64,000 nucleotides of DNA, from the NCBI RefSeq assembly GCF_032854445.1, contig NC_088304.1:28835732-28899731 (forward strand), written 5' to 3'. Both the position numbers and the translations under genes were made by a program. Below the pieces are notes generated by a model. The model ran no database searches. It saw nothing but the letters and a program-made list of their open reading frames with translations, and was not told where the DNA came from. Below are positions 19,606 through 60,779 of the stretch, piece after piece. Each line of letters starts with the position of its first letter. Position 1 is the stretch's first letter. The DNA is from Liolophura sinensis. Lineage: Eukaryota > Mollusca > Polyplacophora > Chitonida > Chitonidae.

Positions 19606-19649
19606 ACGCCCTTTTTTGGAACTCTCCTAACTTACGTCTAACTTAAGAA

Positions 19650-19845
19650 AATTTAACTCATACGACGGCGGCTAGTATTATGGTGGGAGGAAACAGGGTA
19701 GAGCCCGGGGAAACCCATAGCCATCCAAAGGCCACTGGCAGACCTTCCCAACTGAAGAGGAAGCCAACACGAGCTAGACTTGAACTCACAGCGATCGCAC
19801 TGGCGGGAGATTCCTGGGTCTTTCTGCGCCGCTAGCACAAAGGCC
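19650..19845 (-). mobile_element. SINE of the same family, degraded
   Basis: Antisense copy 45 bp beyond the complete one: 'ggcggctagtattatggtgg', 'gagctagacttgaactcaca', 'gcgatcgcactgg'. About 15-20% diverged and lacking a clean tail. Confidence 0.8.
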
Positions 19846-24155: not shown

Positions 24156-24159
24156 ATTT

Positions 24160-25915: not shown

Positions 25916-26036
25916 TCATGTGTCCTCATCGCTGTCAGGATGGAGATCTTCCCGTGAGATCCGTTTGTAGATCTTCTCCTGTCTGCCTTCCATCATGGCC
26001 GCATACCTCGCTACTGTGAATAGGTAGTCGCTCAGC
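25916..26036 (-). CDS. MMAB: MMAB exon 9: C-terminus and stop
   Basis: 121 bp, residues 195-234 and TGA at 25918-25916. [14 protein letters not shown] is the last conserved family block; the end (HPDSDEDT) is acidic, as in human. Acceptor TTGCAG. Confidence 0.96.
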
Positions 26037-29000
26037 CTGCAACAAGCAAACACAAGACTGACTGATTATTGGGGAACTTGTTCAACTTCTTCCTGCCTGT
26101 ATCAAGATGATCAAAAGCTGTAAGCCCATTTGTTGTTTCCTTTTTTACGTCGCAATTATCCATGTGCACGTAAATGTGTTCATAAAACATATATGAAGTA
26201 CACAAGCACTGCAACGTCTGAAAAGAAAATGATGCAAATCAGCTATCACTTGGACAGTCTTTGTAGCTCGTACTTGAGTCTCTCATTGGTCTTTAATGCT
26301 GTGCTTAACAAGTTTTCACTGAGATGATGGCTGTCAGGTTTGTGGGTGGAGTACCCAGCGTAAAGTACTGACAGTCGCAATGAGCCACTGAGGCAGTGAG
26401 ACCTTAGCAAGAGATTAAGGAACAAGTATGAAGTAATACATTACGGACGGCATCACATACAGACGGCATCACACACAGACCGCAGTCTGGACATAATGGC
26501 CTATCAAACAGTTCAAGTTTATATGTACCCTATTACAATGTATAGTACATGTACACTATAACAATGTAAATGTACACTATTACAACATATATGTACACTA
26601 TTACAATGTATATGTACACTATTACAATGTATATGTACACTATTACAATGTAAATGTACACGATTAAAATGTATATGTACACTATTACAATGTAAATGTA
26701 CACAATCAAAATGTATATGTACACTATTACAATGTAAATGTACATGATCAAAATGTAAATGTACACTATTACAATGTGTATTCAACAAAAATATAAATGC
26801 ATGCACCAATTTTATATTGTTTTCTCTCTGTCCTCAATTTTCATAAGATTTTCACATTTTAGGGCAATAATCCAAGCATTAATTCAAGTGTAATTCAGTA
26901 ATCACAGTTACTTGTAATCACAATACTTTGTTTTCATAATAGTGTCACTCGTATATTAAAAAGAATGCAGTTCTAAAATAGAATACCTATATCAAATACA
27001 CTGAAGGTGAGGGGTCAAGTGTGGTGAAAGAAGGTGGGGTTAAGTGTGGTTGAAGAAGGTGGGGTCAAGTGTGATGGAAGAAGGTAAGGGGTCAAGTGTG
27101 ATGGAAGAAGGTAAGGGGTCAAGTGGGGTGGAAAAAGGTGAAGGTCCAATGTTGTGGTTCAAGGTGTGGGAAGAAGGAGGGTGGTCAAAGTGAGGTGGAA
27201 GAAGGCGGGTGGTCAAGTATGGAGGAAAAAGGTGGGTGGTCAAGTGTAGTGGACGAAGGTGGGTAGTCAAGTGTGGTGGAAGAAGGTGGGTAGTCAAGTA
27301 TGGTGGAAGAAGATGGGTAGTCAAGTGAGGTGGAAGAAGGTGGAGGTCCAATGTTGTGGAACAAGGTGGGGACCAAGCGTTATGGAGAGTGACAAGTTCG
27401 GTGCGAAAAGGTGGAGGCTAAATGTTTTAGACGTAGGAGGCCAAATGTTGTGAAGAAGTTAGGGGTCATGTGAGGCAGAAGGTGGGGGTCAAGCTATGTT
27501 GAAGAAGGTGGGGTCAATTGTTGTCAAAGAAGAAGTGAATCGACTGGTGTAGAAGGTGGTGGTCAAGTGTAGTGGAAGAAGATGGTGGTCAAGTGTAGTG
27601 GAAGAAGGTGGTGGTCAAGTATGTTGGAAGGTGGGTGGTCAAGTGTAGTGGAAGAAGGTGAGTGGTCAAGTGTAGTGGAAGAAGGTGAGTAGTTAAGTGT
27701 AGTGGAAGAAGGTGAGTGGTCAAGTGTAGTGGAAGAAGGTGAGTGGTCAAGTGTAGTGGAAGAAGGTTGGTGGTTAAGTGTGGTGGAAGAAGGTGAGTGG
27801 TCAAGTGTGGTGGAAGAAGGTGAGTGGTCAAGCGTAGTGGAAGAAGGTGAGTGGTCAAGTGTAGTGGAAGAAGGTTGGTGGTTAAGTGTGGTGGAAGAAG
27901 GTGAGTGGTCAAGTGTAGTGGAAGAAGGTGGTGGTTAAGTGTCGTGGAAGAAGGCAGGTTGTAAAGTGTAGTGGAAGAAGGTGGGTGGTCAAGCATGGAC
28001 GAAAACAGTGGGGGGTAAAGTATGTCAGAAGAGGGTTGGAGGTTGTGCAGTTTAAAAAGGTGGGTGGTCAAGTGTGGTGGAAGAAGGTGAGTGGTCAAGT
28101 GTGGTGGAAGAAGGTGAGTGGTCAAGTGTGGTGGAAGAAGGTGGGTGGTCACGTATGGAGAAAAAAGGTGGGGGGTAAAGTGTGGCAGAAGACGGTGGGG
28201 GTCAAGTGGGGTGGAAGATGGTGGGTAGTCAAGTGTGGTGGAAGAACGTGAGATTGGTGAAAAAATGTGCGTGGTCAAGTGTGGCAGTAGATGGTGGTTG
28301 GTTAAGTGTGGAGGAAAAAGGTAAAGCGTGGCAGAAGATGGGAGTCAAGTGAAAAAGGTAAAAAGGTAAAAGAAGATGTGGAAGACTTGTATCAGTGAAT
28401 CACACAACCTGTTCAACCTTACAGATATCGACTTTGTATTTATTTCACTCTACTGAAACTGGTTAGAGCCCAGTGTAAAATCATCACCCCTGTTACACAG
28501 CTCATCAACTCTGGTGAGAACATCAACTTTTGTAATTGCACATTAAATCAGCCTCGTGGGCCAATGTGGTTCAGTAATAAAATCTGCTCGTCTGTTTACA
28601 TGGCATTTGGTGAAGCATTACAACAGTTGTGAATCACTCTAAAAAGGTTTTCTAGACAAGGCAGGCTGGAGAAATGTTTTAGGGCTAGAGGCAGAGGAAA
28701 TGCCACACATCATCTGTCTGCCACCCTTCTCCTGGCACCCACCCTCCATGAGGGGTAAGGCATTTCCTGTTGGTTTCCCCTGTCTCTCTGATGTGGGTTG
28801 TTAACTATTAAGCATTAATGAAACTTTCACGGTTGAATTTCTGATTATTTGAAAAAAGCAGCTTTGAATATAAGTTTGCAATGCTATAATTCAAAATCAG
28901 GGAGAAAACTACATCGTTATGGTTGGCATGATGCCTCTAGTCTGTTTCAAGTGTGAAGTGTTATCCTCCTAGAAAATGGGGAAACAAAAACTCCGCAACA

Positions 29001-32000
29001 GTTACACAAATGCACGAAATGGCAGCAGTAAAATAATCCATGTTTGAGACCAAAGTTATATGTACCTAGAACCATGTATCAGCCTTATCACACGGACAAT
29101 TCCTGGGGAGATGAGATATCAACACTGCCTTATTATCTTGGGTGTTTGATAGCTTTGATATACACCTATTTCTGTACATTAAAATCAAACACACTGACAG
29201 TCTTAGTGTATTTTTTTCACAAAAACAAACAACGTAGTATTCAAGAATATCTTCTACAGCGGAAATTGCTCACTCAATCATTCACCAATAATGAATCTGA
29301 GAGGAAATTCTGACAGGATTATCTGGACATTCCTTTACCTGTGGACATTCCTTACGGATTTCTTTACCTGTGGACATTCCTTACAAATTTCTTAGGTCCT
29401 TGAGGACTGAAATTTCTTCATTTTAACGAATAAACCCAATAAGCTGTGCACACTGTTTTCACACCTGCCCAGCTAAGAACTATAGACCTCCAAATATGTT
29501 TATCACCACACAGACTAATCCCCTTGGGAATTTTTGATACCCCGAAGAACTATAATTAAAACTCTTGTGGAGATAGCCACATACATTTATGGCCACTTGG
29601 AATAATGCAAATATTTATATGAAGAGGAAGATTCTGTTTACACCTGAAGAAGCTCAAAATCTACACCTGAAAAGCCACGGGTTCAGTAAGACACTTGATT
29701 AAATATTTCTCTCACCTGCATGGCATTTCCCCTGACCATACAGGTGCACTATAATAGTTTCAGGTAAACACTCACATTAAAAGGCGCTCTGCTGAGCAGG
29801 GGTGTAGCTCTTGGGGTGAGATAGGGCAATGTTTATTGTTTCTGGCACAAAGGCTACATCCTGTAGATACATGTACTGACTATAGACTGACCAGTAAGCA
29901 GTATGGTCACCATTAAACATACATGTACCTGAGCTTTAAGTCAACAACAAGCTCACATACTGGACATTGGTCAAGGTTATACAGTATCAGTGATTGACCG
30001 CTCTAAGAATTGGGCGTATCAGGTGAGGGGGGTGTATTCTTGGTAGACATTTACCTGTACTGGTCAGGTCACACTATAAACAATGTTACACAAGGCCATA
30101 TTACCTGTACTGGTCAGGTCACACTATAAACAATGTTAAACAAGGCCATATTACCTGTACTGGTCAGGTCACACTATAAACAATGTTACACAAGGCCACA
30201 TTACCTGTACTGGTCAGGTCACACTATAAACAATGTTAAACAAGGCCATATTACCTGTTCTGGTCAGGTCATACTATAAACAATGTTAAACAAGGCCATA
30301 TTACCTGTACTGGTCAGGTCACACTATGAACAATGTTACACAAGGCCATATTACCTGTACTGGTCAGGTCACACTATAAACAATGTTAAACAAGGCCATA
30401 TTACCTGTACTGGTCAGGTCACACTATAAACAATGTTAAACAAGGCCATATTACCTGTACTGGTCAGGTCACACTATAAACAATGTTACACAAGGCCATA
30501 TTACCTGTACTGGTCAGTTCACACTATAAACAATGTTAAACAAGGCCATATTACCTGTACTGGTCAGGTCACACTATAAACAATGTTAAACAAGGCCATA
30601 TTACCTGTACTGGTCAGGTCACACTATGAACAATGTTACACAAGGCCATATTACCTGTACTGGTCAGGTCACACTATAAACAATGTTACACAAGGCCACA
30701 TTACCTGTACTGGTCAGGTCACACTATGAACAATGTTACACAAGGCCATATTACCTGTACTGGTCAGGTCACACTATGAACAATGTTACACAAGGCCATA
30801 TTACCTGTACTGGTCAGGTCACACTATGAACAATGTTACACAAGGCCATATTACCTGTACTGGTCAGGTCACACTATAAACAATGTTACACAAGGCCATA
30901 TTACCTGTACTGGTCAGGTCACACTATGAACAATGTTACACAAGGCCATATTACCTGTACTGGTCAGGTCACACTATGAACAATGTTACACAAGGCCATA
31001 TTACCTGTACTGGTCAGGTCACACTATAAACAATGTTACACAAGGCCATATTACCTGTCCTGTCATGTCACATTATAAACAATGTTACACAAGGCCATAT
31101 TACCTGTACTGGTCAGGTCACACTATAAACAATGTTAAACAAGGCCATACCAATTCAATTTCTTGTTTTCTGGGTAGAATGAATCCTTTTTTCAATGTCG
31201 TCAGAGGGTATAAAAATAAAATTGAAAAATCATCTTATTTGTGGCAAAGGATTGACTTGCGTCAGCAGTTAATCCTGATAAAAACACATTAATGAGATTG
31301 GAAAGAATTAAAAAATAGAAAAAGCTTTAAAAATATTAAGATATGAGATGATATAAAGGCGGATTTTCAACTTTATTTTTATTCCATTTTTGAATTTTTA
31401 GTAGTAACAAAATAAAACTGGTTTTACCTAAGCCTATAGCAGGTGAGCAGGAGACTAACTGAGTTGAAGCAGCAGTTGTGAGGGAATTCTAGCTAATGAA
31501 ATCCACCTTTTATTCACATGTCTTTTCAAAAAGCAGCAAATAGGCGAAGCTATCGGTGTAATTATGCAAATGTATAGCACAGAGGGTACACATTTCTTGT
31601 ATTAAAACAGTCAACAAAACGTCACAGCGGTCCTTAAATAATCTCATCCAACCAATGTAGTTTTGTCTCCAAAATCAACATAAACATGTCCATAAATTGC
31701 GCTGAAAGTTGTTTTTCATAAGGTTGCAAAACGGTTGAGAAATTAGGGTATATACTTTCCTTCACAAGTTTCACTAAAGAAAACATACTTATAATTATGC
31801 AAATAAGTAGTATTGAGGGTACACATCTCCCTCACGAAAACAGTCAAAAATGTCATACAAATTTTTGTCACACAATTGTTGTTGTGAACACATGTACATT
31901 CTTTCAGAAGTTTCATTGAAGGACAGATAAGATATATATGGGTCACAACTTCTGTTTATTTACACAGGATGCGATTCATATATATCTTATGTTACCCGAA

Positions 32001-35000
32001 CGAGCTTCAAAATGCCGTTAGATGAAGTCAGTGAAGAAAACATTCCAATTTTCTGTTCACTCGCACATGTAGGTGCTTGGTTATAAGTAAAACAAAAGCC
32101 ATCAATGCTGGATTAAATTACTTTAACATCCAGCAGAACAATGTGTCCTATCCCATGCATATATAGACTGCTGCGGTGCGTCTAATGGTTAGAGTGTCCG
32201 CGTTGATGCCGGCAGACTTGGGATCAAACCGGGTCAGGTCATACCAAAGATTTAAAAACGGTACCCATTGCTGCCTCACTTGGCACTCAGCACTGTTTCC
32301 TTGCTGAGAGGGTATAGCAAGGAAATAAGCTTGGTTGGCCTGTGTCAGTATAATGTGTCTGGGTGGGGTGTCATCTAATCTGGTGTCTTCGGCATGATAC
32401 TTCAGTGGAGGTAGCACATTGGCGGCATGGACTTGCCCTGCCACAAGAAGACACAGTATATGTATACACACACACACTGACTTCTCGTCCTCACGTCTGA
32501 AAATTATTAAGTACGACATTAAACCCTGAGCATGCATTCATTCATTCATTCACTCATTTGCATGTTCATACAAGTCACACGCTATCATTGGCTAACAAAC
32601 GTCATACAAACATACATGTACCAATATGCATATTTTGTAGGCACATTCCACTTCTCCCCCAACATCAGCATTTTACTGAGGTGAGGTGTTCTGAACTAAA
32701 TGAAATGAAGTTAATATAGGCCCACTGGTACTTCAGGTTGATACAAGGAAACCCTTGATAATTATGTCAAACAATTCAGATGGTTAGCGTTGAAGTCTTG
32801 CCAAATACATTTAGCATGGCTAGAATTTGGAAAATCTGTAGATGTAGACCTGAACTACGCAGGCAGAAAACTTCTCATCTTCAGTCAGAACTAGAGAGTT
32901 ATCTAAACACATGGCCCCCTTACAGTTTCTCAGGTGAGGCTGGTTACATAATGTTTACAAACGCATGCACACCTGGATTTGATCAGCCTGCAACCGAAGT
33001 GCTGTAGGAACTCAGTGCTTGATCCTCATGATCGTTTTGTGCTAGGATAGAGGAGGGTGCTGCAGACAGTCTGACATGTCCATCAGCTGAGCGGTAATCA
33101 ATGTTACTGTGGCATTCAGGACGGCGGGAAACCAAACAACTGTCACTACATTCTCCTCACATTTTATAGGTTAAATGGAGCATTTTGATAGAAAGTTTGG
33201 CAAAAGGCCGGCGGGCAGGAGGGCAGGCGAGCTGCGCAATTTCTCTGCCCATGCATCCAGGCGGAATTCTGCATGTTGTACTAAGACAATAACCACCAAG
33301 AAGGAGGCTGGGATGCAGGTCTTGCAACGTCGAATTTTACTTGATTCCTCTGAATCAACAGTTTTAATCATCTAACGTCTCAATGATTCATGGTTTCTGT
33401 CTCCACTCAAATTGATCACAATGCCTCAAAACAGAAAACAAAGCATACAGTGATCACTGCATACTTGGTCAAGGCATACTAGATAAGAGAATACTTAATC
33501 AGTAAATACATGCACCTACATGTCCATAGCAAGGTACATGCCTGATCAAAGCTTACCTGATCAAAGCATACATGCACTTACCAGAATACATACTTGATCA
33601 AAGCATACTTGATTACTGCATACTTGTCCATATCAGTGTACACACCTGCTCAAAGAATACCAGTTCAGTGCTTACTTGATCAATGCATACCTGAATAGTC
33701 CATACATGTACTGAACAGATTACATATCTGATCAAAGCATACCAGATACATGAATACTTGATCAAAGCATACCAGTTAGGTGCACACTTGATCAAACCAT
33801 ACAAGATAAGTGCACAATTGATCAAAGCATACGAGATAAGTGTATACAAAATGTACTCAATAAAGGCATACTGGTACATGTATGTATGGTTGAACGTAGC
33901 TTAATTTCTGCAAAACACTAACCTGTCCCAGAAATATCCACACTAGAACACTAAAACACATAAATCTGTGTTTGTTTAATAAAATGCCTTGTTTCAGATA
34001 ATGTTCAGCATTATGTGAAGTCAAAATATTTCTTATATGTACAAATGTATGTAGCTTAAGTATATATATATAGTAGGCCTATACAGTGTACATAGACAGC
34101 GTCCAGTGTATGTATTTTTAGTTGTTTTACGGTACCCAGTTTTAAGTTCCATGCCAACAGGCAGCCAGGTCAATGTCAGTGTCCAGTAGAAGATTTGACC
34201 ATGGTGCCACAGACTTGACCGTAAGTGGACACTTGATGTGGAAACATGTCCATAGGACTTGACCACTGTGTATACCATCTCTCTGGGCAGGATAAACACA
34301 GCTTTTGGCCTAATCCACTCAAGGCAGGGGATTACAGGGGGCAGATTTTGGACTGACAAACAAGGATCCTGTCAGACTGGAGAGTGGGGGGTGAGGGTAG
34401 GGGTGGGGAGATGTGAAGATGGTAATAATCAGGGCTTATCTGTCCAGCATAGCTCTGACCACTTCCAGCTGACCAGTCATTATCAAACAGGTGTTTGGAG
34501 GAAATGAAGGGTAAACAAGGCCCTTGGTGGACTGCTGGGGGAAGAAGTGCAGAAGTTGTAAACATAACACTTGTGTTGGTTAAATACCTGAGGGAATATA
34601 AGTCGGGCATTTAAACAAGGTCTGACCCATCAACTGAGTTATCCAACATGTAGTAGACAACTATAGCCTTTCCTCAATGAAGCCATGAGTTCAAATCCAG
34701 ATCCTAGGTTTGGCTGTGGCTTTATGTCAGGATGTTTGCCAGGCACTTGTAAAGGGGTGGTGGTTTCTTCCAAACATTTCCAGCTTTCTTCAATCCTTAT
34801 GTTACGGGGCAATAAGTGATATACATGTATTTTTCAAAACAGCAAATACTAACTGTGTGAATTACTACTTTCCAACATGTGATATACAGCACCATACTAC
34901 ACTGGAAGATATTAAAGTGGTCAGTGCAAATGGCCATGTACATCGGTGCCTTTGACCGTTTATTGTCACCAAGGCCCCCAAAACAGTCCAAGGACATAAA

Positions 35001-38000
35001 TCACAAAATCAAATAGTTACTCAATGTACATGCATGTTGTGGAAAACACAAACAAGAACCAATTTTTGAGAAGAATTTCAGAACTTGATATATTTTACAT
35101 CAGCTGTATATCATTATGCTAGTGACCAATGCTACACAACTGTAAGTTTTAGTAGTTTGCTTCTGAGAAAGTGTGTATTCGAAATTTACTGTAATAAAAA
35201 AGGTTTAAGCATGTAAGCATTGACACACGGGCTGTGTTCAAGACGTTTTTCCTTGTCCCACATTTAAATATGAACATTATTGCAGTTGACCTTTAATGTT
35301 TCAAATTTGACACTGGTATTAAGAATTAAACAATGTAATATGTTAGCAGAGGAACAGAGAAAATGAGGGTTTCGTTTGTCCATCATCGTTTTAAGTCCAC
35401 TGATGATCCAAACTGATTTGTATGAAATCAATTACTTGACAGACAGACAGACCAAATATGACCATAGGAGCCAGGTAACTGGTCCATGGGATGTTACTGT
35501 ACATACATGCCCCATAAACCCCTTCTCTCACAGCACTCCCCACTTCTCCCCCTCTCTCAACCAAACATGACCTGCACTAAGGCCTGTCACTTATGCACAC
35601 TAATTGGAGTTAACAGCTGCCAGGACGGAGAGGTGTGTCTCGATACCTGGTGGTGGCCAGTCATATGGCAGGTCCCTGACGTAGGTGAAATTTCGGGTGG
35701 AAATAATCTCCTTAGTTGGGCAGGGATCAGATAACTTTACCTGGGGGACACAGGTGAGGGATACAGGGGCTGGGGTAGACTCCTCCTATAATGTCAACAT
35801 GCTATCAGCACACGTATTAGCACACATCCTGAAGGATAATGATACAGTGGACACCTTGCCATATGTCCAGGCTGATGAAACTTGAACTGATGAAACAGGG
35901 ATCAGATAACTTTACCTGGGGACACAGGTGAGGGATACAGGGGCTAGGGTAGACTCCTCCTATAATGTCAACATGCTATCAGCACACGTATTAGCACACA
36001 TCCTGAAGGATAATGATACAGTGGACACCTTGCCATATGTCCAGGCTGATGAAACTTGAACTGATGAAACAGGGATCAGATAACTTTACCTGGGGACACA
36101 GGTGAGGGATACAGGGGCTAGGGTAGACTCCTCCTATAATGTCAACATGCTATCAGCACACGTATCAGCACACATCCTGAAGGATAATGATACAGTGGAC
36201 ACCTTGCCATATGTCCAGACTGATGAAACTTGAACTGATGAAACAGGGATCAGATAACTTTACCTGGGGACACAGGTGAGGGATACAGGGGCTAGGGTAG
36301 ACTCCTCCTATAATGTCAACACGCTAACAGCACAAGTATCAGCACACATCCTGAAGGATAATGATACAGTGGACACCTTGCCATATGTCCAGGCTGATGA
36401 AACTTGAACTGATGAAACAGGGATCAGATAACTTTACCTGGGGACACAGGTGAGGGATACAGGGGCTAGGGTAGACTCCTCCTATAATGTCAACATGCTA
36501 TCAGCACACGTATCAGCACACATCCTGAAGGATAATGATACAGTGGACACCTTGCCATATGTCCAGGCTGATGAAACTTGAACTGTACTAAATTCATCAA
36601 CAAGTGGTAGTACTGTATTTTACCTAAAGTTTTGCAGTTTTCAGTTCATAAATTTTGCTTGATTCCGACTGATTCTTCCACTTTTTGGGGCTACTTAAGG
36701 ATTTGTTCGTGAAGTTTGATATATTTATTATCAAAAAAACTTGAGTGTTGGCATAACTGGTATGATTTTAAGGTCTTTCTGCGATTCTGAAAGTGCATTT
36801 CTACATACCAAACTTTACGTGAAATACAGTGTCTCTATAATTATAGATGTTAAGAGCTTACACATATAGCTGAAGTGTATGACAAAGTGTAGGACAATGT
36901 GTAGGACAATGTGCATGACAAATCGTAGGACAAAGGATAGGACAAACTGTAAGACAAACTGTACAACAGAGTACAACAAATGTACAACAAAGGGTACAAC
37001 AAAGTGTATGACAAAGTGTATGACAAAGTGTATGACAAAGTGTAGGACAAAGTGTAGGACAATGTGCATGACAAAGGGTAGGACAAACTGTAAGACAAAC
37101 TGTACAACAGTGTACGACAAAGTGTAGGACAAAGCAACATTACATTTCACAGTTTTGACTGCATAATAAAAAAAACTGTTTAAACACAATATTGTAACAC
37201 AGTGTGGCTTACAAAGATAAACCACACTGTGTTACAATATTGTGTTTAAAGATAAACTAAAGATAAACCACAGTTATCATTAGTGACTGCTGAACAGCCA
37301 GATTTACATCAATATGTATGTAAGTATGTATGCTTTGGATTTCATGTCATACATTATAACAACTGTTCAATCATATGATGAGGAGTCATTAGGCATGGGT
37401 ACATACATGTATACTGTGTCTTCTTGTAGTATTGCGAGTCCATGCCACCAAAGTGCTGCCTCCACTGAAGGATCATGCTAATGACACCAGACATTACACC
37501 CTCACCGTTTCACATTAAACTGACACTGGGCAAACCAGCCCTGTTTCCTTGTTCTAACCTCCCTGAGTGATGAGTGAAACAAATTATTACTGTAATTCTT
37601 CAACCATTTCATATGTTCGCAAGGTGTTCATTCAAGCATACTTTGCAAGAATTATTCTGTGTTGACTGATAAAATTATACTTTTTGTGAAGCCCTGAAAC
37701 AGGCTAATCCAAACAATGTAGTTTTGTTTCCAAACATGAACCAAAAATGTCCATAAATTGCATTGAAAAGTGCACTTTCAAACATGAATCGGCTGAGGAA
37801 TAAGGGTGCCATTTAATTTTGAAGTCTTTAGTATGACCCGACCTGGGTTTGATCCTAAATGGGAAATGTGGACATTTTGTGAAGTTTGGAGCTTGGAATT
37901 TTGTCTGCCTGCATGTGAATGAAGACTTCAACCTAAGTTACAAACTAAACAACACTTGAGTGCAAACCCACAACGCAGACAAAGTTAACCTGGTGAAGTA

Positions 38001-50000: not shown

Positions 50001-51323
50001 TCCTGCTCTGACATTTGTCTTTTCCCTGGTATTTAGAATAAAGTGAGCATCACAAAAAAGTCATCAAAACAACAATATTTATGACTGACACCACAACACA
50101 GACCTGATGGACCCTCCAGTTGTTCCCTACTCTACTTTTTTTTATTTTGGGTTTTTGAACAGGAATTTTTAAAAAATATTTTTGGTACAGTATTAATTTA
50201 TTTAAAATACTATGTTATCCAACAAGGAATTTTTCACAGAAGGCCTTACAGAATTCTTCTAAAATATCCCCTAAAGCAACTCTTGATACATACTCCTAGC
50301 TCTGTCATGCATCACTGAGCTATTTGCCACTGGCCATCATGCATGACTGAACTGTGACCTTTGTACATTTTATGTTTTACAGTAGTTCACAGGGACATGT
50401 TAACCTGAGATCAGCCAGCAAACTTTCAGCATGCAAGGTTTTCATTACAACTTATGCATAAAAAAAAATCGTCAGAAATGAAAAGTAGTTGATGGACTTG
50501 AATGCTATTTTATGTATATGGGTGGGAGGAAAGGCAAAGGGAGCGATCTCTTCAAAAAAATTCTCCCTGTTTTGACTATTAAATGTGCCAGTGACTCTGA
50601 ACTGGCTCAATGTTCAATATTTCACATTCTGAGCTTTCACAATACCATGGTGACATTTGCCAATGCTGATACAACTTCCAGTTTCATTTATTTGATTAGA
50701 GTTTTACGCCATACTCAAGAATATTTCACTTAAATAGAGGTGGCCAGCATTATGGTGGGAGTAAACAGAACAGAGTCAGGAAGAACACCACGACCATCCC
50801 CAGGTTGCTGAAGGACCTTCCCATGTATGGCCAGGGAATTACAGCATTAGCAAAAGGAGATAAGACTTCCATTATAGTTCAATGCAATACTTCTTGGGGC
50901 CAAAAAGTAAAAACACAGAGGTAAGTAAATAAAACTATCTCATCTTTTAATTTACATTTAACTAGTTTCACTCGTGTATTCTTAACTGGTTCTAAACCAT
51001 TACTGCCAGTAACAACCTTTCTGTTAAGAGCTGTCTGCCACGAACCAACTTAAAAATACACCATTGGCTTGTAAAGAACATCTTTCAACAAGTGATTGCA
51101 GTCAGACACAACCGCTGATCTTTCCTCAAAATCTGACAGATAAACTGATAAACCCCAGAGTATCGAAATCTGAGCCTAAAACAACTCCTCCGTCTGTGAA
51201 AATACTGGAATTAAATTATATATGCTTGCAAGTAAAAACTTACGCTTGACACCTTATGGCACTGCACGAATAGCATGCCGAAGTCTTTAAAAGTTGTGAC
51301 CCTGTCCTACGTAGGACAAACAT
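25916..51323 (-). CDS. MMAB: Cob(I)alamin adenosyltransferase, mitochondrial (whole gene, 9 coding exons)
   Basis: Transfers the 5'-deoxyadenosyl group of ATP to cob(I)alamin, making adenosylcobalamin for mitochondrial methylmalonyl-CoA mutase. Joined exons on the minus strand are 51323-51244, 50025-49970, 49504-49411, 48135-48078, 47352-47280, 46741-46644, 41055-40991, 40596-40537 and 26036-25916: 705 bp, 234 residues plus stop; the human protein has 250. All eight introns are GT-AG and phases match at every junction (2,1,2,0,1,0,2,2). Visible motifs: basic, Ser/Cys-rich N-terminus without early acidic residues, typical of a mitochondrial presequence (1-27); ATP-site TKTGDRG (40-46); [10 protein letters not shown] (51-60); GTTDEL (67-72); SSAREAHL (113-120); FILPSGGK (150-157); the catalytic CRRAER (169-174), whose human counterparts R190, R191 and E193 are disease sites; NRLSDYLF (194-201). 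It is divergent from MVK. The intron total is about 24.7 kb, unusually repeat-laden. Confidence 0.96.
26520..26780. repeat. Minisatellite, ~20-bp unit, MMAB intron 8
   Basis: Copies of 'atgtacactattacaatgta', about 12. The unit contains the palindrome TGTACA. Long His/Val or Tyr/Ile frames across it are artefacts. Confidence 0.93.
27002..28370. repeat. Minisatellite, 27-bp unit, MMAB intron 8
   Basis: The unit is 'gtggtcaagtgtagtggaag' plus 'aaggtga', about 50 degenerate copies, purine-rich on the plus strand. Because 27 is a multiple of three, the minus strand stays open for 229 codons as a 9-residue LLPPHLTTH repeat. Confidence 0.95.
30049..31149. repeat. Minisatellite, 50-bp unit, ~22 copies, MMAB intron 8
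   Basis: The unit is 'tattacctgtactggtcagg', 'tcacactataaacaatgtta' and 'cacaaggcca'. Very regular, with few variant sites (tataaac/tatgaac, ttaca/ttaaa), pointing to recent homogenisation. Confidence 0.97.
31650..31757 (+). mobile_element. Inverted-repeat element, family A, copy 3 (half)
   Basis: Only the 3' half: 'caatgtagttttgtctccaa', 'cataaattgcgctgaaagtt' and 'acggttgagaaattagggta'. It lies between two related ~65-bp direct repeats (31560-31627, 31791-31858). Confidence 0.65.
32168..32566 (+). mobile_element. Full-length tRNA-derived SINE, 'acgttaaaccc' tail family
   Basis: Head 'ggtgcgtctaatggttagag' (A box) and 'cttgggatcaaaccgggtca' (B box), a ~250-bp body, then 'attaagtacgacattaaacc' and a (CATT)n tail. 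It lies in MMAB intron 8, antisense to that gene. Confidence 0.8.
33440..33880. repeat. Degenerate tandem repeat, MMAB intron 8
   Basis: Irregular spacing of 'cttgatcaaagcatacc' with 'gataagtgcacacttgat', units about 25-35 bp. More decayed than the other arrays. Confidence 0.75.
34670..34800 (+). mobile_element. Degraded SINE fragment (third family)
   Basis: 'gagttcaaatccagatccta' (B box) followed by 'ggctgtggctttatgtcagg' and 'atgtttgccaggcacttgta'. The same string occurs in part at 46880-46915, 18115-18205 and 58225-58290. Confidence 0.5.
35723..36585. repeat. Five near-identical 174-bp tandem repeats, MMAB intron 8
   Basis: Copies start at about 35723, 35898, 36072, 36246 and 36420 with 'gggatcagataactttacct'. 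Only a handful of differences separate copies (for example cgtattag/cgtatcag). The largest unit in the window. Confidence 0.96.
36611..36830 (+). mobile_element. Inverted-repeat element, family B, copy 2 (complete)
   Basis: 220 bp with termini 'tactgtattttacctaaagt' and 'aactttacgtgaaatacagt', inverted. It directly abuts the 174-bp array on the left. Interior 'acttgagtgttggcat' and 'tctgaaagtgcatttct' define the family. Confidence 0.82.
36870..37135. repeat. Minisatellite, 12-bp unit, MMAB intron 8
   Basis: Copies of tgtatgacaaag / tgtaggacaaag / tgtaagacaaac, about 22. Frames of 82-136 codons across it are periodicity artefacts. Confidence 0.95.
37179..37250. repeat. Perfect inverted repeat, 29-bp arms, 14-bp loop
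   Basis: Left arm 37179-37207 (tttaaacacaatattgtaac, then acagtgtgg) is the exact reverse complement of 37222-37250. The loop is cttacaaagataaa. Every base pair was checked by eye. In MMAB intron RNA it would form a long perfect stem. Confidence 0.97.
37588..37807 (+). mobile_element. Inverted-repeat element, family A, copy 4
   Basis: 220 bp from 'tactgtaattcttcaaccat' to 'cggctgaggaataagggtg'. Interior 'tttttgtgaagccctgaaac', 'caatgtagttttgt', 'ccataaattgcattgaaaa'. Confidence 0.78.
38293..38312. repeat. Homopolymer run of 20 G
   Basis: Uninterrupted G20 on the plus strand, C20 in the MMAB pre-mRNA. Its exact length in an assembly should be treated with caution. Confidence 0.9.
39430..40425. 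repeat. Minisatellite, 43-bp unit, ~23 copies, MMAB intron 8
   Basis: The unit is 'cataaagatcaccatttcat', 'ctggcccaagttctttccca' and 'cca', with a shorter variant 'ccactgataaag'. It ends about 110 bp from MMAB exon 8. Confidence 0.95.
40537..40596 (-). CDS. MMAB: MMAB exon 8
   Basis: 60 bp, residues 176-194 with split ends: [19 protein letters not shown]. Matches human VVPLVQMGETDANVAKFLN. Acceptor TTTCAG, donor GTAAAC. The next exon lies 14.5 kb away. Confidence 0.96.
40991..41055 (-). CDS. MMAB: MMAB exon 7: catalytic arginine motif
   Basis: 65 bp, residues 154-175, [20 protein letters not shown] and onward. Holds the CRRAER signature plus the upstream Arg equivalent to human R186. Acceptor ACCAG, donor GTGAGT. 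Confidence 0.97.
41195..42115. repeat. Minisatellite, 64-bp unit, ~14 copies, MMAB intron 6
   Basis: The unit is 'cttggtgtacagcatggtat', 'gtaatatgggactgtgcttc', 'catcagtgtgtcagtcctgc' and 'taga'. One copy carries an internal duplication of 'tacagcatggtg' near 41590. Confidence 0.96.
42300..42734 (+). mobile_element. Family B remnants, about two partial copies
   Basis: Ends with 'aacttcaggtgaaatacaat' plus family B interior motifs ('cttgattctgattgattgat', 'aggcctttatgtgc'). The boundaries are blurred, apparently one copy inside or beside another. Confidence 0.5.
42835..44045. repeat. Minisatellite, 22-24-bp units, ~53 copies, MMAB intron 6
   Basis: Two interspersed unit types: 'ttagattagacaccttgtaa' with tg, and 'tttacattacacaccttgta' with ctg. 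The order of types repeats in blocks, implying multi-unit duplications. Confidence 0.95.
44862..45068 (-). mobile_element. Inverted-repeat element, family B, copy 5
   Basis: Termini 'tactgtgtttcacctaaaga' and 'actttaagtaaaacacagta'. Contains 'atgcactttcagaagtttac' and 'ccaacacttgggtttt' in reversed order relative to copy 2. Located in MMAB intron 6. Confidence 0.75.
45415..45565 (-). mobile_element. SINE fragment
   Basis: 'gtgctcaagaatattttgct' and 'aaacccacgaccatccgcat' match the antisense tail and body of the complete SINE at 19340, followed by a tRNA-like segment. Internally deleted. Confidence 0.6.
46644..46741 (-). CDS. MMAB: MMAB exon 6
   Basis: 98 bp, residues 121-153, ending [24 protein letters not shown] matches human ELEQWIDKYTSQLPPL. 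Acceptor CTGCAG, donor GTGAGT, phase 1 in and 0 out. Confidence 0.96.
46929..47156 (+). mobile_element. tRNA-derived SINE with 8-bp flanking repeat, MMAB intron 5
   Basis: 'ggggtctctgtggctcagtt', 'gctgtgagttcaagtccagc', 'ccaccataatgctggccacc', 'cttgagtactgcgtaaaaca' and an (AAAT)n tail. GTGTCTTC occurs at both edges (46921-46928, 47157-47164), consistent with a target-site duplication. Lies between MMAB exons 5 and 6. Confidence 0.9.
47280..47352 (-). CDS. MMAB: MMAB exon 5
   Basis: 73 bp, residues 97-120 plus one base. Reads [15 protein letters not shown], then ASSAREAHL, matching human IQCTLQDVGSALATP and CSSAREAHL. Acceptor CTCTCAG, donor GTAAGC. Confidence 0.97.
47447..47568 (+). mobile_element. 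5'-truncated SINE, MMAB intron 4
   Basis: 3' half only: 'tcctctcactataatgggtg', 'aatgaaatattcttgagtac', 'ggcgtaaaccaccaatcaaa', and an (AAAT)n tail. Confidence 0.85.
47700..47863 (+). mobile_element. Inverted-repeat element, family B, copy 6 (partial)
   Basis: The right terminus 'aatttcaggtgaaatatagt' and interior 'cacaaaaactttgccatata' and 'gataaatcagagtcaatca' match family B. The left end is unclear, next to the C-rich stretch 47629-47660. Confidence 0.55.
48078..48135 (-). CDS. MMAB: MMAB exon 4
   Basis: 58 bp, residues 78-96 ([19 protein letters not shown]), a helical segment less conserved than its neighbours but of the same length as in human. Acceptor TTTCAG, donor GTAGGT, phase 2 in and 0 out. 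Confidence 0.92.
49179..49395 (-). mobile_element. Inverted-repeat element, family B, copy 7
   Basis: From 'tactctatttcaccaaagaa' to 'aaacttttggtgaaataaag', with 'aggccttaaaatgacacctt' and 'ttgatggcaacactaagttt'. It ends 16 bp before MMAB exon 3 (49411), inside its donor-side intron. Confidence 0.7.
49411..49504 (-). CDS. MMAB: MMAB exon 3
   Basis: 94 bp, residues 46-77 with split ends. Carries [20 protein letters not shown], nearly identical to the family core. The position equivalent to human GDKGFSS reads GDRGTSA. Donor GTAACA, a somewhat weak match. Confidence 0.96.
49970..50025 (-). CDS. MMAB: MMAB exon 2
   Basis: 56 bp, residues 28-45, phase 2 in and 1 out. Contains [11 protein letters not shown], the N-terminal ATP-binding segment of PduO-type adenosyltransferases. 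Acceptor CCAG and donor GTGAGT. Confidence 0.95.
50685..50840 (-). mobile_element. SINE fragment, MMAB intron 1
   Basis: Antisense 3' part: 'agttttacgccatactcaag', 'aatatttcactta', 'ggccagcattatggtgggag', 'cacgaccatccccaggttgc'. Confidence 0.8.
51244..51323 (-). CDS. MMAB: MMAB exon 1: start codon and mitochondrial presequence
   Basis: Codons 1-26 plus two bases of codon 27. It begins [16 protein letters not shown] and continues Cys/Ser-rich with no acidic residue, as expected of a mitochondrial targeting peptide. The donor is GC|GTAAGT, phase 2, which matches exon 2. The ATG has A at -3. Homology is not expected here; the start rests on frame, phase, splice donor and targeting-peptide character. 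Confidence 0.85.
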
Positions 51324-51612
51324 TTTTAACGGACAGGTTTGAGACGGCTATTTAGATGTCAATAAGTTTGTCCACAGAGCCAATCTATGGGCGCCGCCAT
51401 GTTTAACCTCACACGCGCACTCCTTTACTTCCGAGAAGCTGTCAATGTTTTGATTGGCGCCCCGCCCACGTGCGAGGATCATGCGACAGATGCCGCGTGT
51501 TTTCACAAGCCGTACCCCCTTCGTTAGAAATGTTGAATTACATCGAGATAGATAGTTTTACCTGACGAGTGTGATGCGGTGAACGTGGTTGCTTTGGATC
51601 GTCACTTTTAAA
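51324..51612. promoter_or_regulatory. Shared bidirectional MMAB/MVK promoter region
   Basis: 289 bp between the two start codons, with many CpGs in 51390-51500 unlike the flanks. Seen motifs: CCAAT at 51380-51384; inverted CCAAT (ATTGG) at 51453-51457; GC box GCCCCGCCC at 51459-51467, running into E-box CACGTG at 51467-51472; ETS-like ACTTCCG at 51427-51433; YY1-like CCGCCATGTT at 51394-51403. ATCATGCGAC at 51478-51487 matches the classic SRE-1 (ATCACCCCAC) at 7 of 10 bases. In mammals this pair shares an SREBP-2-driven promoter; SREBP use here is inference. No TATA box is evident. Confidence 0.8.
51359..51400 (-). other. Candidate upstream ORF on the MMAB side
   Basis: ATGGCGGCG in strong Kozak context (A at -3, G at +4) opens a 13-codon frame ending in TGA, 35 bp before the MMAB ATG and in a different frame. 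It matters only if transcription starts above 51400. The same bases form the YY1-like motif, so the ATG may instead be part of an initiator. Confidence 0.4.
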
Positions 51613-51684
51613 ATGAAGGAGATTATAGTTTCGGCGCCTGGCAAGGTCATACTTCACGGCGAACACTCTGTTGTGTATGGGAAA
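51613..51684 (+). CDS. MVK: MVK exon 1: start codon and motif 1
   Basis: 24 codons, [20 protein letters not shown] and onward. Donor AAA|GTGAGT, phase 0. The ATG at 51613 (AAAATGA) is the first in-frame ATG and puts motif 1 two residues nearer the N-terminus than in human. A minimal ATG-CGG-TGA lies upstream at 51574-51582. Confidence 0.95.
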
Positions 51685-57600: not shown

Positions 57601-59899
57601 CACAGCAGACACACTACCGTTTGAAAAGTGGCGAATATCCAGAAACACATCCATTGGATAGGTTAGACCTGACACTACCAGTGGTTTATATGATTATACT
57701 GTAATATTTGAGTGGTCTGGCCAGAATATTTTTCCTGTGGATAGCCCACACACTAGTTGGGTACAATGTACATGTAAAGCAAGTGTTATTTGTCTGAACT
57801 TCCCATAACACGGTGTGTTTCTTGATATATCCCATTTTCAAAGGTAAGTGCACTCAGGGGAGATAATCTCCTAGAGGTTAACGGCTTAAGGGAGATAATT
57901 CCATGTTAAATAACGCATTAATTGGACCAGTGAATATTATGATATCGTGATATGACTGAAATCTTGTTGAAAATAATGTTAAATGCCAAACAACCAAAAT
58001 CTCTGGTCACATTTCAGTTCCCTGGAGTGTTTGGTCCGGTGTTTGAAGCCATGCACGGTTTATCTGTCAGGAGTGTAGAGACCTACAATCAAATGGCTGA
58101 CAAAGCTGACCTGGAGCATTACTCTACATTACAGGTACAGATTACCTATCACCTACCTAAAACATTATCATACGTTACAGTTAAGCTAAGGCCTTCTCTG
58201 TCTGCCAGGTCCTTGACCAAGGAGGTTGCATGTTCAATTCCAGCTCTGGCTGCTTTGGCTGTGAAGAGCAGGGTTTTACTTTGGTTTTCTCTGGTAACCA
58301 ACAAACCTGATCACCATCATAAAAGTTTGAAATTGTTCAGTATGACATAAAACACCAATTAATTAAACAAGTGAAATACAGGTAAAATACAGGTAAGGTA
58401 CATCTTTTTTTACACCTGCTCCAGGGTTGTCATGCACTACAGGTAACTGTAAGCTCATGTTTAAAAATGCCATGTTTAAAAATGCCATTTTAAAAATATA
58501 TTTAAAAATACTAGAAATTATGTTAGGCTTCTTGTAAAATAGCTAAGGTTTTGGAGCGGAAATTTGGTGCATGCGAATGTCGTATTTTGAAACATTGCCA
58601 AACTTACCTATTCATTTACCATTCATCTTAGTAGAAGTTGTAACTTCCTCTCTTGGCGTTTAGCATGAAGGGGATGGTGCAACGACTGGTTGACCCCTAT
58701 CAGTATAATGGCTTGGGCGGGGCGGCTTACTTGGCTTCGGTAATTTGTCTCGGTAGAGCAGCACTAGATATAAGAGCAGTGGAAATCCGTCCTGCAACAA
58801 GGAGGCACATTAAACACACCCTAAGGATTCCTTCGTCATCTTATGACTGAAAAATTGTTGAGTACGACGTTAAACCCCAAGCACTCACTCACTCACTCAC
58901 ACAGCTTTACCCACCACCCCATCACTGAAAAACCGTTCATCTTTCTGACATTTTCAGGATCTGATTGACATCAATCATCAGCTATTAAGGCTGATTGGTG
59001 TGAGTCACCCAGTGCTGGAGACCCTTGTACAGGAGTCGTCTGCTCTTGGCGTACACACCAAGTTGACAGGTGCAGGAGGCGGGGGATGTGCCTTGTCACT
59101 TATATCACCAGGTAAGCATTACACAGTTAAGATTTAATACCGAAAAATTTTGCCGAAAAAATTGATCGGTGCAAATCCAACTGAATTGTTAACATTTTTA
59201 TGAGAATGGCACAAGTGATTACTTTTCTCATCATGCCTAATATGAATGTGATATTCTGGTGCTGAGCTAACCAAGTTATAAGTCTGCAGGTGTGCAGTGT
59301 ACATCTATCGAAGGGCAGTTGTGTGCTGTAGTTTCCTCTTTATACTGTGGTTTCCTCTTTACACTGTGGTTTCCTCTTTATACTGTGGTTTCCTTGTTGG
59401 GTATTCAGATCAATCCCGGCTTTTTATTGGGAATTTCTGGACTCCCCTTCTGTCAGTCTCCCTGGGGCCTTCATTACAAGCTTGTGTTTATTGGAAACCA
59501 AGGGTTTTACGCCAAATATAGTGCGCAGGTCTTTGCATTCTTGAGTATGGCGTACACATATACCGTAATTCTTCTAATTTGCGGGACACTTGATCTGCAC
59601 TTTTTATAGCCAATGTGAATGTAACTGTAGCAGGAATATTTAGTTTCTTTTTTCTCGCATGGTTAGAACATCTCATGATACTTGTATCGTGTAAAACCTT
59701 GAAATGTTGCATTGATGTGTAATGAAATGTGTGTTATATTGCAGATGTTAAGGATGATGTGATAGAGAAGCTGAAGACTGTGTTCAGGGAGAAAGGTTTC
59801 GACTGCTGGGAGACATCAGTCGGTGGAGACGGAGTTCTGTTACATTCCAACTTCAACACTATATTTACAGTCCCTAAAACCTTCCGAGAATCTCTCTGA
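51613..59899 (+). CDS. MVK: Mevalonate kinase (whole gene, 8 coding exons)
   Basis: ATP-dependent phosphorylation of mevalonate to 5-phosphomevalonate in the isoprenoid/sterol pathway; GHMP kinase family, cytosolic or peroxisomal. Joined exons are 51613-51684, 53069-53216, 54863-55010, 55963-56228, 57138-57274, 58018-58134, 58958-59111 and 59745-59899: 1197 bp, 398 residues plus stop (human 396). All introns are GT-AG with matching phases (0,1,2,1,0,0,1). Motif 1 [12 protein letters not shown] (7-18) includes the Lys equivalent to human K13. The GHMP phosphate loop [11 protein letters not shown] spans 137-147. Glu194 and catalytic Asp205, in HGKPSGIDN, match human E193 and D204. Motif 3 [10 protein letters not shown] spans 331-340. 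No key residue is missing, so an active enzyme is expected. Confidence 0.97.
52036..52250 (+). mobile_element. Inverted-repeat element, family A, copy 5, MVK intron 1
   Basis: 'aattctttaaccttttcgta' to 'atgtgaaaaggttgaggaat', with 'ctgtgttgactgataaaatt' and 'cattgcactgaaagttt' inside. Confidence 0.75.
53069..53216 (+). CDS. MVK: MVK exon 2
   Basis: 148 bp, residues 25-73 plus one base. [18 protein letters not shown] aligns without gaps to human [18 protein letters not shown]. Acceptor TTTCAG, donor GTAAGC. Confidence 0.96.
53300..53470 (-). mobile_element. Divergent SINE fragment, MVK intron 2
   Basis: 'ttatttacttgtttgattgt', 'tgtttaatgccatattgaag' then 'aatttttttgtttta' resembles an old antisense copy of the 'aaacaccaatc'-tail SINE. 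Heavily mutated. Confidence 0.5.
53515..53640. repeat. Three 46-bp tandem repeats, MVK intron 2
   Basis: 'gactgggaaaagggtcacac', 'aagcgtcggcagtaatagct' and 'ttgtta', two nearly perfect copies and a third diverging. Confidence 0.9.
54085..54555. repeat. Minisatellite, ~52-bp unit, 9 copies, MVK intron 2
   Basis: The unit is 'gataggtcagtagacagcta', 'gccacagggtgtcaacgtgt' and 'tgcctataaaag'. Ends about 310 bp before MVK exon 3. Confidence 0.95.
54863..55010 (+). CDS. MVK: MVK exon 3
   Basis: 148 bp, residues 74-122 plus two bases. Ends with [18 protein letters not shown], equivalent to human RLAVLAFLYLYLSICRKQ. Acceptor CTTCAG, donor GTAAGA. Confidence 0.96.
55963..56228 (+). CDS. MVK: MVK exon 4: phosphate loop and catalytic Asp
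   Basis: 266 bp, residues 123-211 plus one base. Contains [20 protein letters not shown] and HGKPSGIDN. The acceptor (GTTGAAG|G) has a poor pyrimidine tract but is the only AG that keeps frame and homology. Donor TATG|GTAGGG. Confidence 0.95.
56663..56876 (+). mobile_element. Inverted-repeat element, family B, copy 8, MVK intron 4
   Basis: 'taccatatttcacctaaagt' to 'cttcaggtgaaatacacta', about 214 bp. Interior 'cttgtcataaaaagtattgg' and 'tctaaaagtgcatttttaca'. Confidence 0.78.
57138..57274 (+). CDS. MVK: MVK exon 5
   Basis: 137 bp, residues 212-257. [20 protein letters not shown] matches human [20 protein letters not shown]. Acceptor TACAG, donor GTAAGC. Confidence 0.97.
58018..58134 (+). 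CDS. MVK: MVK exon 6
   Basis: 117 bp, 39 codons, residues 258-296, phase 0 at both ends. [12 protein letters not shown] begins the helical segment equivalent to human KFPEIVAPLLTSID. Acceptor TTTCAG, donor CAG|GTACAG. Confidence 0.95.
58185..58370 (+). mobile_element. SINE, degraded, MVK intron 6
   Basis: 'ttgcatgttcaattccagct' (B box), 'ctggctgctttggctgtgaa', then 'tcagtatgacataaaacacc' and 'aattaattaaac'. A head like the third family joined to the 'aaacaccaat' tail. Confidence 0.65.
58680..58903 (+). mobile_element. SINE, 'acgttaaaccc' tail family, MVK intron 6
   Basis: 'cagcactagatataagagca', 'cctgcaacaaggaggcacat', 'aaaaattgttgagtacgacg', 'ttaaaccccaagc' and a (CACT)n tail. Ends about 55 bp before MVK exon 7. 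Confidence 0.8.
58958..59111 (+). CDS. MVK: MVK exon 7: motif 3
   Basis: 154 bp, residues 297-347 plus one base. Contains [17 protein letters not shown] and the glycine-rich [12 protein letters not shown]. Acceptor TTTCAG, donor GTAAGC. Confidence 0.97.
59745..59899 (+). CDS. MVK: MVK exon 8: C-terminus and stop
   Basis: 155 bp, residues 348-398 and TGA at 59897-59899. [18 protein letters not shown] parallels human GFDCLETSIGAPGVSIHS. Acceptor TTGCAG. Confidence 0.96.
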
Positions 59900-60320: not shown

Positions 60321-60779
60321 GTTGCATTGAAAACGATTTATATGCAGAGGGGAAAGAAACAAACTGATACAAGCCACTCTTGTCAGAAGAGTTACATACC
60401 AAGGGCCGATTTAGTGAAGGGATTTTTTGACTGAAGTCAAAATTTTGAACTTTTGATCACCCAGATTATAATGTTTTTGGGTCAGAGGCAGCTAAAATTA
60501 CATGTACATGTACCTTACGTGTACCTCAGGTGTACTTTACATGTACCTTACATGTAGTTTGAGTCGAACTGCCAAGTTTTCAATGTTTAGAAAAATTATG
60601 GACAGCAGGCTCCTTCTGTTATTATGTAAGACTGAAGATTTCTTGAGAGAATAGTTTAGTAAGCATTTTTAATATAAATCTTTACAGGAGCCCAATGTAA
60701 TGTTGTATGGAAAATACCCATCCCTTCTCTCCCTTTGTTGTAAGAATGTGGCCATATCATTGGTGGTGCCTATCATTCA

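What the first reader, a model, noticed from the sequence alone, without database searches (positions are those of the whole stretch)
25916..59899. Head-to-head MMAB/MVK pair in an invertebrate genome
Two full-length genes of unrelated pathways (cobalamin and mevalonate) stand divergently with start codons 289 bp apart. Mammals have the same pair under one SREBP-2-responsive promoter. Finding it beside invertebrate-type SINEs implies the linkage predates vertebrates, although many protostomes do not make sterols, so sterol feedback may not be the original reason for the pairing.
Basis: partly seen in the sequence, partly recalled or inferred. Interest (0 to 1): 0.75.

Follow-up and report, generated by a model that had tools for sequence, protein, structure and literature searches.

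The report
Chiton head-to-head MMAB–MVK gene pair
In a chiton, a marine mollusc, the vitamin-B12 gene MMAB and the cholesterol-pathway gene MVK sit back to back around one short stretch that looks like a shared promoter, as in mammals, which suggests the pairing is older than vertebrates; it is a good new example of a known kind of arrangement, not a new kind of system.

Summary
Hand-built models give an intact MMAB (9 coding exons, 234 aa, minus strand, 51323–25916) and MVK (8 coding exons, 398 aa, plus strand, 51613–59899), 289 bp between start codons. The source fits the published assembly of the chiton Liolophura sinensis (first named L. japonica), a protostome. Human MMAB and MVK are head to head, and both genes lie in one region in the gnathostomes studied. 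Chance divergent adjacency of a named pair is about 2 in 100,000, so inheritance from a bilaterian ancestor is the best reading; no second invertebrate could be examined. The 289 bp look like a CpG-rich, TATA-less housekeeping promoter (YY1-, ETS-, Sp1-, CCAAT- and CACGTG-type sites), without a consensus sterol-response element. The two vertebrate neighbours that could be tested (UBE3B by its HECT domain, GLTP) were not found beside the pair. Most likely a shared promoter holds the pair together; SREBP input may be ancestral or later. New member of a known kind; moderate interest.

The parts
25916..51323 (-). MMAB (cob(I)yrinic acid a,c-diamide adenosyltransferase), 9 coding exons: 51323-51244, 50025-49970, 49504-49411, 48135-48078, 47352-47280, 46741-46644, 41055-40991, 40596-40537, 26036-25916
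   Evidence: open 234-aa frame with GT..AG introns; PDB 2idx E 2e-78; TIGR00636
51613..59899 (+). MVK (mevalonate kinase), 8 coding exons: 51613-51684, 53069-53216, 54863-55010, 55963-56228, 57138-57274, 58018-58134, 58958-59111, 59745-59899
   Evidence: open 398-aa frame with GT..AG introns; PDB 1kvk E 5e-109; TIGR00549
51324..51612 (.). Putative shared bidirectional promoter, 289 bp: CpG observed/expected 1.28 and GC 0.48 against 0.46 and 0.386 for the window; no TATAWAW match
51393..51403 (-). YY1-type site AANATGGCGGC, on the MMAB sense strand
   Evidence: 1 found, 0.001 expected in 1000 order-1 Markov sequences; motif recalled
51359..51400 (-). 13-codon upstream reading frame before the MMAB start, beginning inside the YY1-type site
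   Evidence: read from the sequence and translation
51427..51433 (-). ETS/GABP-type core CGGAAGT
   Evidence: 1 found, 0.026 expected; motif recalled
51380..51384 (+). CCAAT box (NF-Y-type core; longer consensus RRCCAATSR not met)
   Evidence: 2 CCAAT found, 0.545 expected
51453..51457 (-). second CCAAT box
51462..51472 (.). Sp1-type GGGCGG (minus strand, 51462-51467) overlapping by one base the E-box CACGTG (51467-51472)
   Evidence: 1 each, 0.130 and 0.092 expected

Best explanation
These are the MMAB and the MVK of a chiton, one copy of each found, standing head to head on one CpG-rich, TATA-less promoter of under 300 bp, and inherited in that arrangement from the common ancestor of protostomes and vertebrates. 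The promoter most likely fires in both directions from a shared nucleosome-free stretch, under general activators of housekeeping genes (YY1-, ETS-, Sp1-, CCAAT- and E-box-type sites), so that both enzymes are made in most cells. The pair has stayed together mainly because a break in the shared stretch would damage both genes. Shown here: the genes, their homology, orientation, spacing, base composition, motif matches, and the sterol and SREBP genes elsewhere in the genome. Inferred: common descent of the pairing (one protostome, literature for vertebrates), promoter activity and co-expression, which proteins bind, and the reason for retention.
For: Intact gene models and spacing. The 289 bp has CpG o/e 1.275 and GC 0.478; of 1275 windows of 289 bp (step 50), 31 reach that CpG value and 8 reach both, seven of them starting in one minisatellite and the eighth, at 51351, overlapping this interval. 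YY1-type 11-mer found where 0.001 is expected, plus ETS, Sp1, E-box and two CCAAT cores. In amphioxus, bidirectional promoters are commonest among ubiquitous promoters, and 372 putatively ancestral ones were traced (PMC6292497, passages). A YY1-like motif about 10 bp after the start site, Sp1-like boxes and E-boxes are enriched in sponge promoters (PMC4773876, passages). MMAB and MVK are head to head in human (PMC8575900, passages), lie in the TRPV4 region of the gnathostomes studied, and are both single in all teleosts studied (PMC9664204, section 20). All 7 chiton MVK intron positions map, by the alignment, onto rat codons 26, 76, 124, 211, 256, 295 and 347, which agree with human exon ends as I recall them from variant names (c.78, c.226, c.371, c.631, c.768, c.885, c.1039; not checked by a call).
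Against: Only one invertebrate was examined, so inheritance versus a second origin rests on improbability. No transcript, CAGE or chromatin data: start sites and co-expression are unknown. Of 16 patterns tried, the short ones other than the YY1-type are only mildly unexpected, and some fell at or below expectation (initiator 6 found, 7.3 expected). PMC3403606 (passages) states that bidirectional pairs are shuffled between invertebrates and vertebrates and that co-regulation does not keep them; the invertebrates in its pathway table are fly and C. elegans. PMC6292497 found most of its 372 ancestral pairs lost in vertebrates, so survival is not the rule.
Confidence: 0.7

Rival explanations
1. 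Sterol feedback is the original reason: the pair was already an SREBP target in the bilaterian ancestor, raising mevalonate flux and adenosylcobalamin supply together, with divergent SREBP sites in the chiton.
For: In human cells the two genes share a promoter raised by nuclear SREBP2 and by statin (PMC8575900, passages). The chiton genome has SREBP (PDB match SREBP-1A; EKRYRLSIN with the tyrosine I recall as distinctive), INSIG, squalene epoxidase, lanosterol synthase and methylmalonyl-CoA mutase. The CACGTG box beside an Sp1-type box and two CCAAT boxes would suit SREBP with Sp1/NF-Y helpers.
Against: No match to TCACNCCAC, ATCACCCCAC or ATCACGTGAY in the 289 bp; the best match to ATCACCCCAC there has 3 mismatches, equalled or bettered in 252 of 300 random sequences. 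In the whole window the exact TCACNCCAC occurs once, at 5085, and ATCACCCCAC with up to one mismatch twice, at 29502 and 34403, all far away. Limit of this test: 1215 bp upstream of the chiton lanosterol synthase frame also lacks these, so the consensus may not suit chitons.
Confidence: 0.2
2. The pair is inherited but neutral: two separate promoters happen to lie close, and retention is inertia in slowly rearranging genomes, without co-regulation.
For: The products act in different pathways. PMC3403606 (passages) argues against co-regulation as the force. No expression data here.
Against: 289 bp leaves little room for two independent promoters. The neighbours recognised here are not the vertebrate ones, and the HECT and GLTP genes were not found nearby, although the pair itself is kept; the neighbour search misses short exons.
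Confidence: 0.2
3. Coincidence: the chiton and the vertebrate pairings arose separately.
For: The finding was picked because it resembles a known mammalian pair, and no other invertebrate was checked.
Against: Chance for a named pair about 1.8e-5; even over the 876 mouse promoter pairs of PMC6292497 about 0.016 such coincidences are expected, before asking for a gap under 300 bp (my sums).
Confidence: 0.05
4. Assembly error joining two loci.
For: HiFi coverage of the published assembly was 14X, with 1,110 gaps (PMC11068029); contig C99 holds seven tandem mitochondrial COX1 matches, so some joins in this assembly are odd.
Against: No N in the window; one CpG-rich stretch spans both starts; the result equals an arrangement known from human, which a random error would hardly produce.
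Confidence: 0.02

Closest known systems
Mammalian MMAB-MVK bidirectional promoter, SREBP-2 regulated (PMC8575900, passages; Murphy et al. 2007 seen only in its reference list)
   Same: Homologues of the same two genes, same divergent orientation, CpG-rich shared interval with Sp1- and CCAAT-type sites
   Different: No consensus sterol-response element in the chiton interval; different neighbouring genes as far as tested; no evidence yet of sterol response
Ancient metazoan bidirectional gene pairs (e.g. 372 putatively ancestral promoters, PMC6292497, passages)
   Same: Head to head, under 1 kb, housekeeping-type promoter, apparently kept across phyla
   Different: Whether MMAB-MVK is in that list could not be checked (supplements not available)

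Membership tests
MMAB / PduO-type cobalamin adenosyltransferase | Full-length match above curated cut-off, closest to the animal enzyme | tested here: met
   TIGR00636 160 bits, cut-off 108; 2idx E 2e-78, then 7ruv and 7rut E about 1e-77 (which I take for forms of the same human protein), then 2nt8 E 3e-33
MMAB / PduO-type cobalamin adenosyltransferase | Mitochondrial targeting peptide and adenosyltransferase activity | not testable with these tools
   35 residues precede the aligned domain; no targeting predictor or assay
Mevalonate kinase (GHMP kinases) | Full-length match above the mevalonate-kinase cut-off, with the three GHMP motifs | tested here: met
   TIGR00549 234 bits, cut-off 163; [25 protein letters not shown] and [10 protein letters not shown] present (motif roles recalled)
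Bidirectional (head-to-head) gene pair, under 1 kb | Divergent neighbours with starts under 1 kb apart | tested here: met
   289 bp between start codons; transcription starts not mapped
Bidirectional (head-to-head) gene pair, under 1 kb | Both directions driven by the shared interval; co-expression | not testable with these tools
   No transcript data held
SREBP-2-regulated MMAB-MVK locus | SREBP binding site in the shared interval | tested here: inconclusive
   No consensus SRE or SREBP E-box, but such sites are degenerate and 1215 bp upstream of the chiton lanosterol synthase also lack the consensus
SREBP-2-regulated MMAB-MVK locus | SREBP, INSIG and sterol synthesis genes present in the organism | tested here: met
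   SREBP, INSIG, squalene epoxidase, lanosterol synthase; SCAP not resolved among 17 sterol-sensing matches
Ancestral bilaterian pair | Same pairing in other invertebrate phyla | not tested
   No other animal genome is searchable here

The most novel reading that the evidence does not exclude
MMAB-MVK is a bilaterian-age regulatory module that ties adenosylcobalamin supply (and so propionate and odd-chain or cholesterol breakdown) to mevalonate flux under SREBP, working in a protostome that makes its own sterols.
Probability: 0.18. Interest if true: 0.6.

Novelty: new member of a known kind. Interest (0 to 1): 0.38.

Why it matters
A link between vitamin B12 and cholesterol metabolism is usually told as a mammalian story. 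If the same promoter pairing is over 500 million years old (age recalled), one can ask in a mollusc with its own sterol genes whether the pairing came before or after sterol control. It also adds an example to the debate on whether bidirectional pairs survive between invertebrates and vertebrates.

Tried and rejected
Vertebrate source: rejected. COX1 has 6 and nad5 many in-frame stops under the vertebrate mitochondrial code, none under the invertebrate code, and the assembly matches a chiton. Retrocopies or pseudogenes: rejected, both genes keep introns and open frames. Second copies: none found (best candidates only). Wider vertebrate neighbourhood: a human list reads MYO1H, KCTD10, UBE3B, MMAB, MVK (PMC3608171, passage). 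0 of 62 HECT matches (for UBE3B) lie within C10:28.7–29.0 Mb; the six on C10 are near 4.2 and 10.4 Mb. 0 of 6 GLTP matches lie there, one being on C10 at 19.1 Mb. FAM222A gave no match here or in the controls, so it says nothing. Flanks of 40 kb on each side (8 pieces): 35 frames of 100 aa or more listed, 6 of them given to Pfam, one with a match, a TSP1 domain; another of the six matches clathrin heavy chain in the PDB over 58 residues, 44.7 bits. Short exons would be missed, so absence of other genes is not shown. Ten long frames of the window given to Pfam: no match over cut-off, one below it. Rfam: no match in the window. ARAGORN: no tRNA. Inverted repeats and bacterial-type promoter scan: nothing useful. 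Literature: full-text searches (open-access library; listings only, and 20 of 58 listed) showed no title or abstract that places MMAB beside MVK in an invertebrate. Of the papers listed I looked inside PMC8575900, PMC9664204, PMC3815023, PMC6292497, PMC4773876, PMC3403606 and PMC3608171 (passages; section 20 of PMC9664204). Irimia et al. 2012 is not held; supplements could not be opened. Sterol synthesis in chitons: searches (13 listed; 10 of 62 listed) showed no title on it, and passages of PMC10692144 and PMC12965858 gave nothing on chiton sterol genes; older biochemical reports of sterol synthesis in chitons are recalled only.
Full report
What is there. The window lies at C10:28,835,732–28,899,731 of a 609-Mb genome in 632 contigs. 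Hand-built exon models give a 234-aa MMAB on the minus strand (nine coding exons, 51323 to 25916) and a 398-aa MVK on the plus strand (eight coding exons, 51613 to 59899), each a single open frame with GT..AG introns. Between the start codons lie 289 bases. The proteins match PDB 2idx (E 2e-78, 122 of 185 aligned residues identical) and 1kvk (E 5e-109, 177 of 377 identical), which I recall as human MMAB and rat MVK, and pass the curated NCBIfam cut-offs TIGR00636 and TIGR00549. The genome search found one adenosyltransferase match, here, and two GHMP-kinase matches, one here and one a galactokinase on C1; only best candidates are scored in such searches.

Whose genome. The published assembly of the chiton 'Liolophura japonica' is 609,495,693 bp in 632 scaffolds (PMC11068029, passages and section 11); G000 is 609,464,459 bases in 632 contigs. 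A correction renames the species L. sinensis (PMC12441733, whole text). The longest scaffolds of the paper (96.4, 82.5, 60.4 and 58.4 Mb) fit G000 contigs C1, C6, C7 and C8, on which matches lie as far out as 84.6, 75.6, 54.1 and 57.5 Mb, as if contigs were numbered by alphabetic order of scaffold names. On that order C10 would be scaffold_6, 36,638,032 bp; C10 is 36,632,598 bp. The small length differences, 31 kb in all and 5.4 kb on C10, are not explained. Independently, the mitochondrial contig has cox1, cox2, atp6, cox3, nad3 and nad2 on one strand and nad5, nad4, nad4L, cob, nad6, nad1 and the large rRNA on the other (protein genes named by eye), an order I recall as ancestral for molluscs. 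COX1 has 6 in-frame stops under the vertebrate code and none under the invertebrate code. So the source is a protostome.

Is the pairing inherited? With 28,233 gene models (PMC11068029), the chance that a named gene is another's divergent 5' neighbour is about 1.8e-5. Allowing for all 876 mouse promoter pairs (PMC6292497) the expected number of such coincidences is about 0.016, before the short distance is counted; these are my sums. Human MMAB and MVK are head to head (PMC8575900, passages). Both lie in the TRPV4 region of the gnathostomes studied, and both are single in all teleosts studied (PMC9664204, section 20); that paper does not state their orientation in the section I read. One protostome and the vertebrates together favour a bilaterian origin. 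I could not look in any other invertebrate. The wider vertebrate neighbourhood was not seen: no HECT match (0 of 62) or GLTP match (0 of 6) lies near, and FAM222A could not be judged. In 40 kb on either side I recognised only a thrombospondin type 1 exon to the left and a clathrin-heavy-chain-like exon to the right, by a method that misses short exons. If that holds, the pair outlived its surroundings.

The MVK introns speak for old orthologues. All seven chiton intron positions map through the alignment to rat codons 26, 76, 124, 211, 256, 295 and 347, with phases 0, 1, 2, 1, 0, 0, 1. These agree with human exon ends as I recall them from names of disease variants; the human positions were not checked by a call.

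The interval. Its CpG observed/expected is 1.28 and its GC 0.48, against 0.46 and 0.386 in the whole window. Of 1275 windows of 289 bp, 31 reach the CpG value and 8 reach both: seven starting in the minisatellite at 9429–9968 and one that overlaps this interval. It holds a YY1-type AANATGGCGGC (1 found, 0.001 expected), an ETS core (0.026 expected), an Sp1 core (0.130), a CACGTG box (0.092) and two CCAAT boxes (0.545 expected). It has no TATAWAW, NRF1 or full CRE match and no RRCCAATSR; two CRE half-sites (0.78 expected) and six initiator matches (7.3 expected) are unremarkable (expectations from 1000 order-1 Markov sequences of the interval; 16 patterns, chosen from memory). The YY1-type site is on the MMAB sense strand 70 to 80 bases before its start codon. 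In sponge promoters such a motif peaks about 10 bp after the start site (PMC4773876, passage), so MMAB transcription may begin near 51400–51415; this is inference.

Sterol control. In human cells nuclear SREBP2 raises activity of both promoter directions, statin raises it too, and the locus has NF-Y and SREBP2 sites (PMC8575900, passages). In the chiton interval there is no match to TCACNCCAC, ATCACCCCAC or ATCACGTGAY; the best match to ATCACCCCAC has three mismatches, which 252 of 300 random sequences equal or better. The whole window has one TCACNCCAC, at 5085, where 2.2 are expected, and two ATCACCCCAC with up to one mismatch, at 29502 and 34403, where 3.5 are expected. As a yardstick I looked 1215 bp upstream of the chiton lanosterol synthase frame: no consensus there either, so absence of the consensus is weak evidence. 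The genome has a lanosterol synthase frame of 744 aa (best PDB match 1w6k, lanosterol synthase, 841 bits), squalene epoxidase exons (PDB squalene monooxygenase E 4e-35), INSIG exons and an SREBP (two adjoining exons, 86 and 83% identical to the recalled query; PDB SREBP-1A E 1e-14; a membrane-like segment follows, by eye). The squalene-epoxidase family model also rings in E. coli and Caulobacter, so one search is the better support. The genome also has methylmalonyl-CoA mutase, the user of MMAB's product (10 exon matches, all on C11). SCAP was not resolved (17 sterol-sensing matches). Genes present do not show that sterol is made or sensed.

Verdict. The best account is an old, inherited bidirectional promoter of housekeeping type; SREBP control may be ancestral or a later layer, and the chiton is a fair place to test it. 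As a kind of system this is known: putatively ancestral bidirectional promoters have been traced, most of them lost in vertebrates (PMC6292497), while another study states that such pairs are shuffled between invertebrates and vertebrates (PMC3403606). My full-text searches showed no paper reporting this pair in an invertebrate, but they cover only an open-access library without supplements, and I saw listings.

Noticed in passing
L004:364-2598 (-), G000 C6 about 75.64 Mb: Lanosterol synthase is one uninterrupted frame of 744 aa and the only match of its family among 4 candidates scored. Animal lanosterol synthase genes usually have many introns (recalled), so this looks like a retrogene that replaced its parent.
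   Followed up: partly
G000 contigs C99 and C632: C99 (108,685 bases) holds seven tandem COX1 matches about 15.5 kb apart, one of them shorter, and C632 one more: a mitochondrial concatemer in the assembly.
   Followed up: no
window 22685-24157, 27011-28250, 30051-31149, 35721-36585, 39432-40413, 41194-42115, 42829-44042, 60773-63352: Many long minisatellites, several inside MMAB introns; MMAB intron 8 is 14.5 kb.
   Followed up: no
window 51359-51400 (-): A 13-codon upstream frame before the MMAB start begins inside the YY1-type site, a possible translational brake.
   Followed up: no
window 50685-50850, 47476-47559, 47029-47144 (MMAB introns 1, 4 and 5); 13284-13411, 15186-15224, 19348-19493, 19632-19750 (left of MMAB): Copies of one SINE-like dispersed repeat, 70-85% identical to the first over 39 to 146 bases; also an 18-base match at 59537-59554.
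   Followed up: partly
L020:1790-2305 (+) and L016:665-1093 (+): Neighbouring genes: a clathrin-heavy-chain-like exon about 32 kb right of the window and a spondin-like TSP1 exon about 9 kb left of it.
   Followed up: partly
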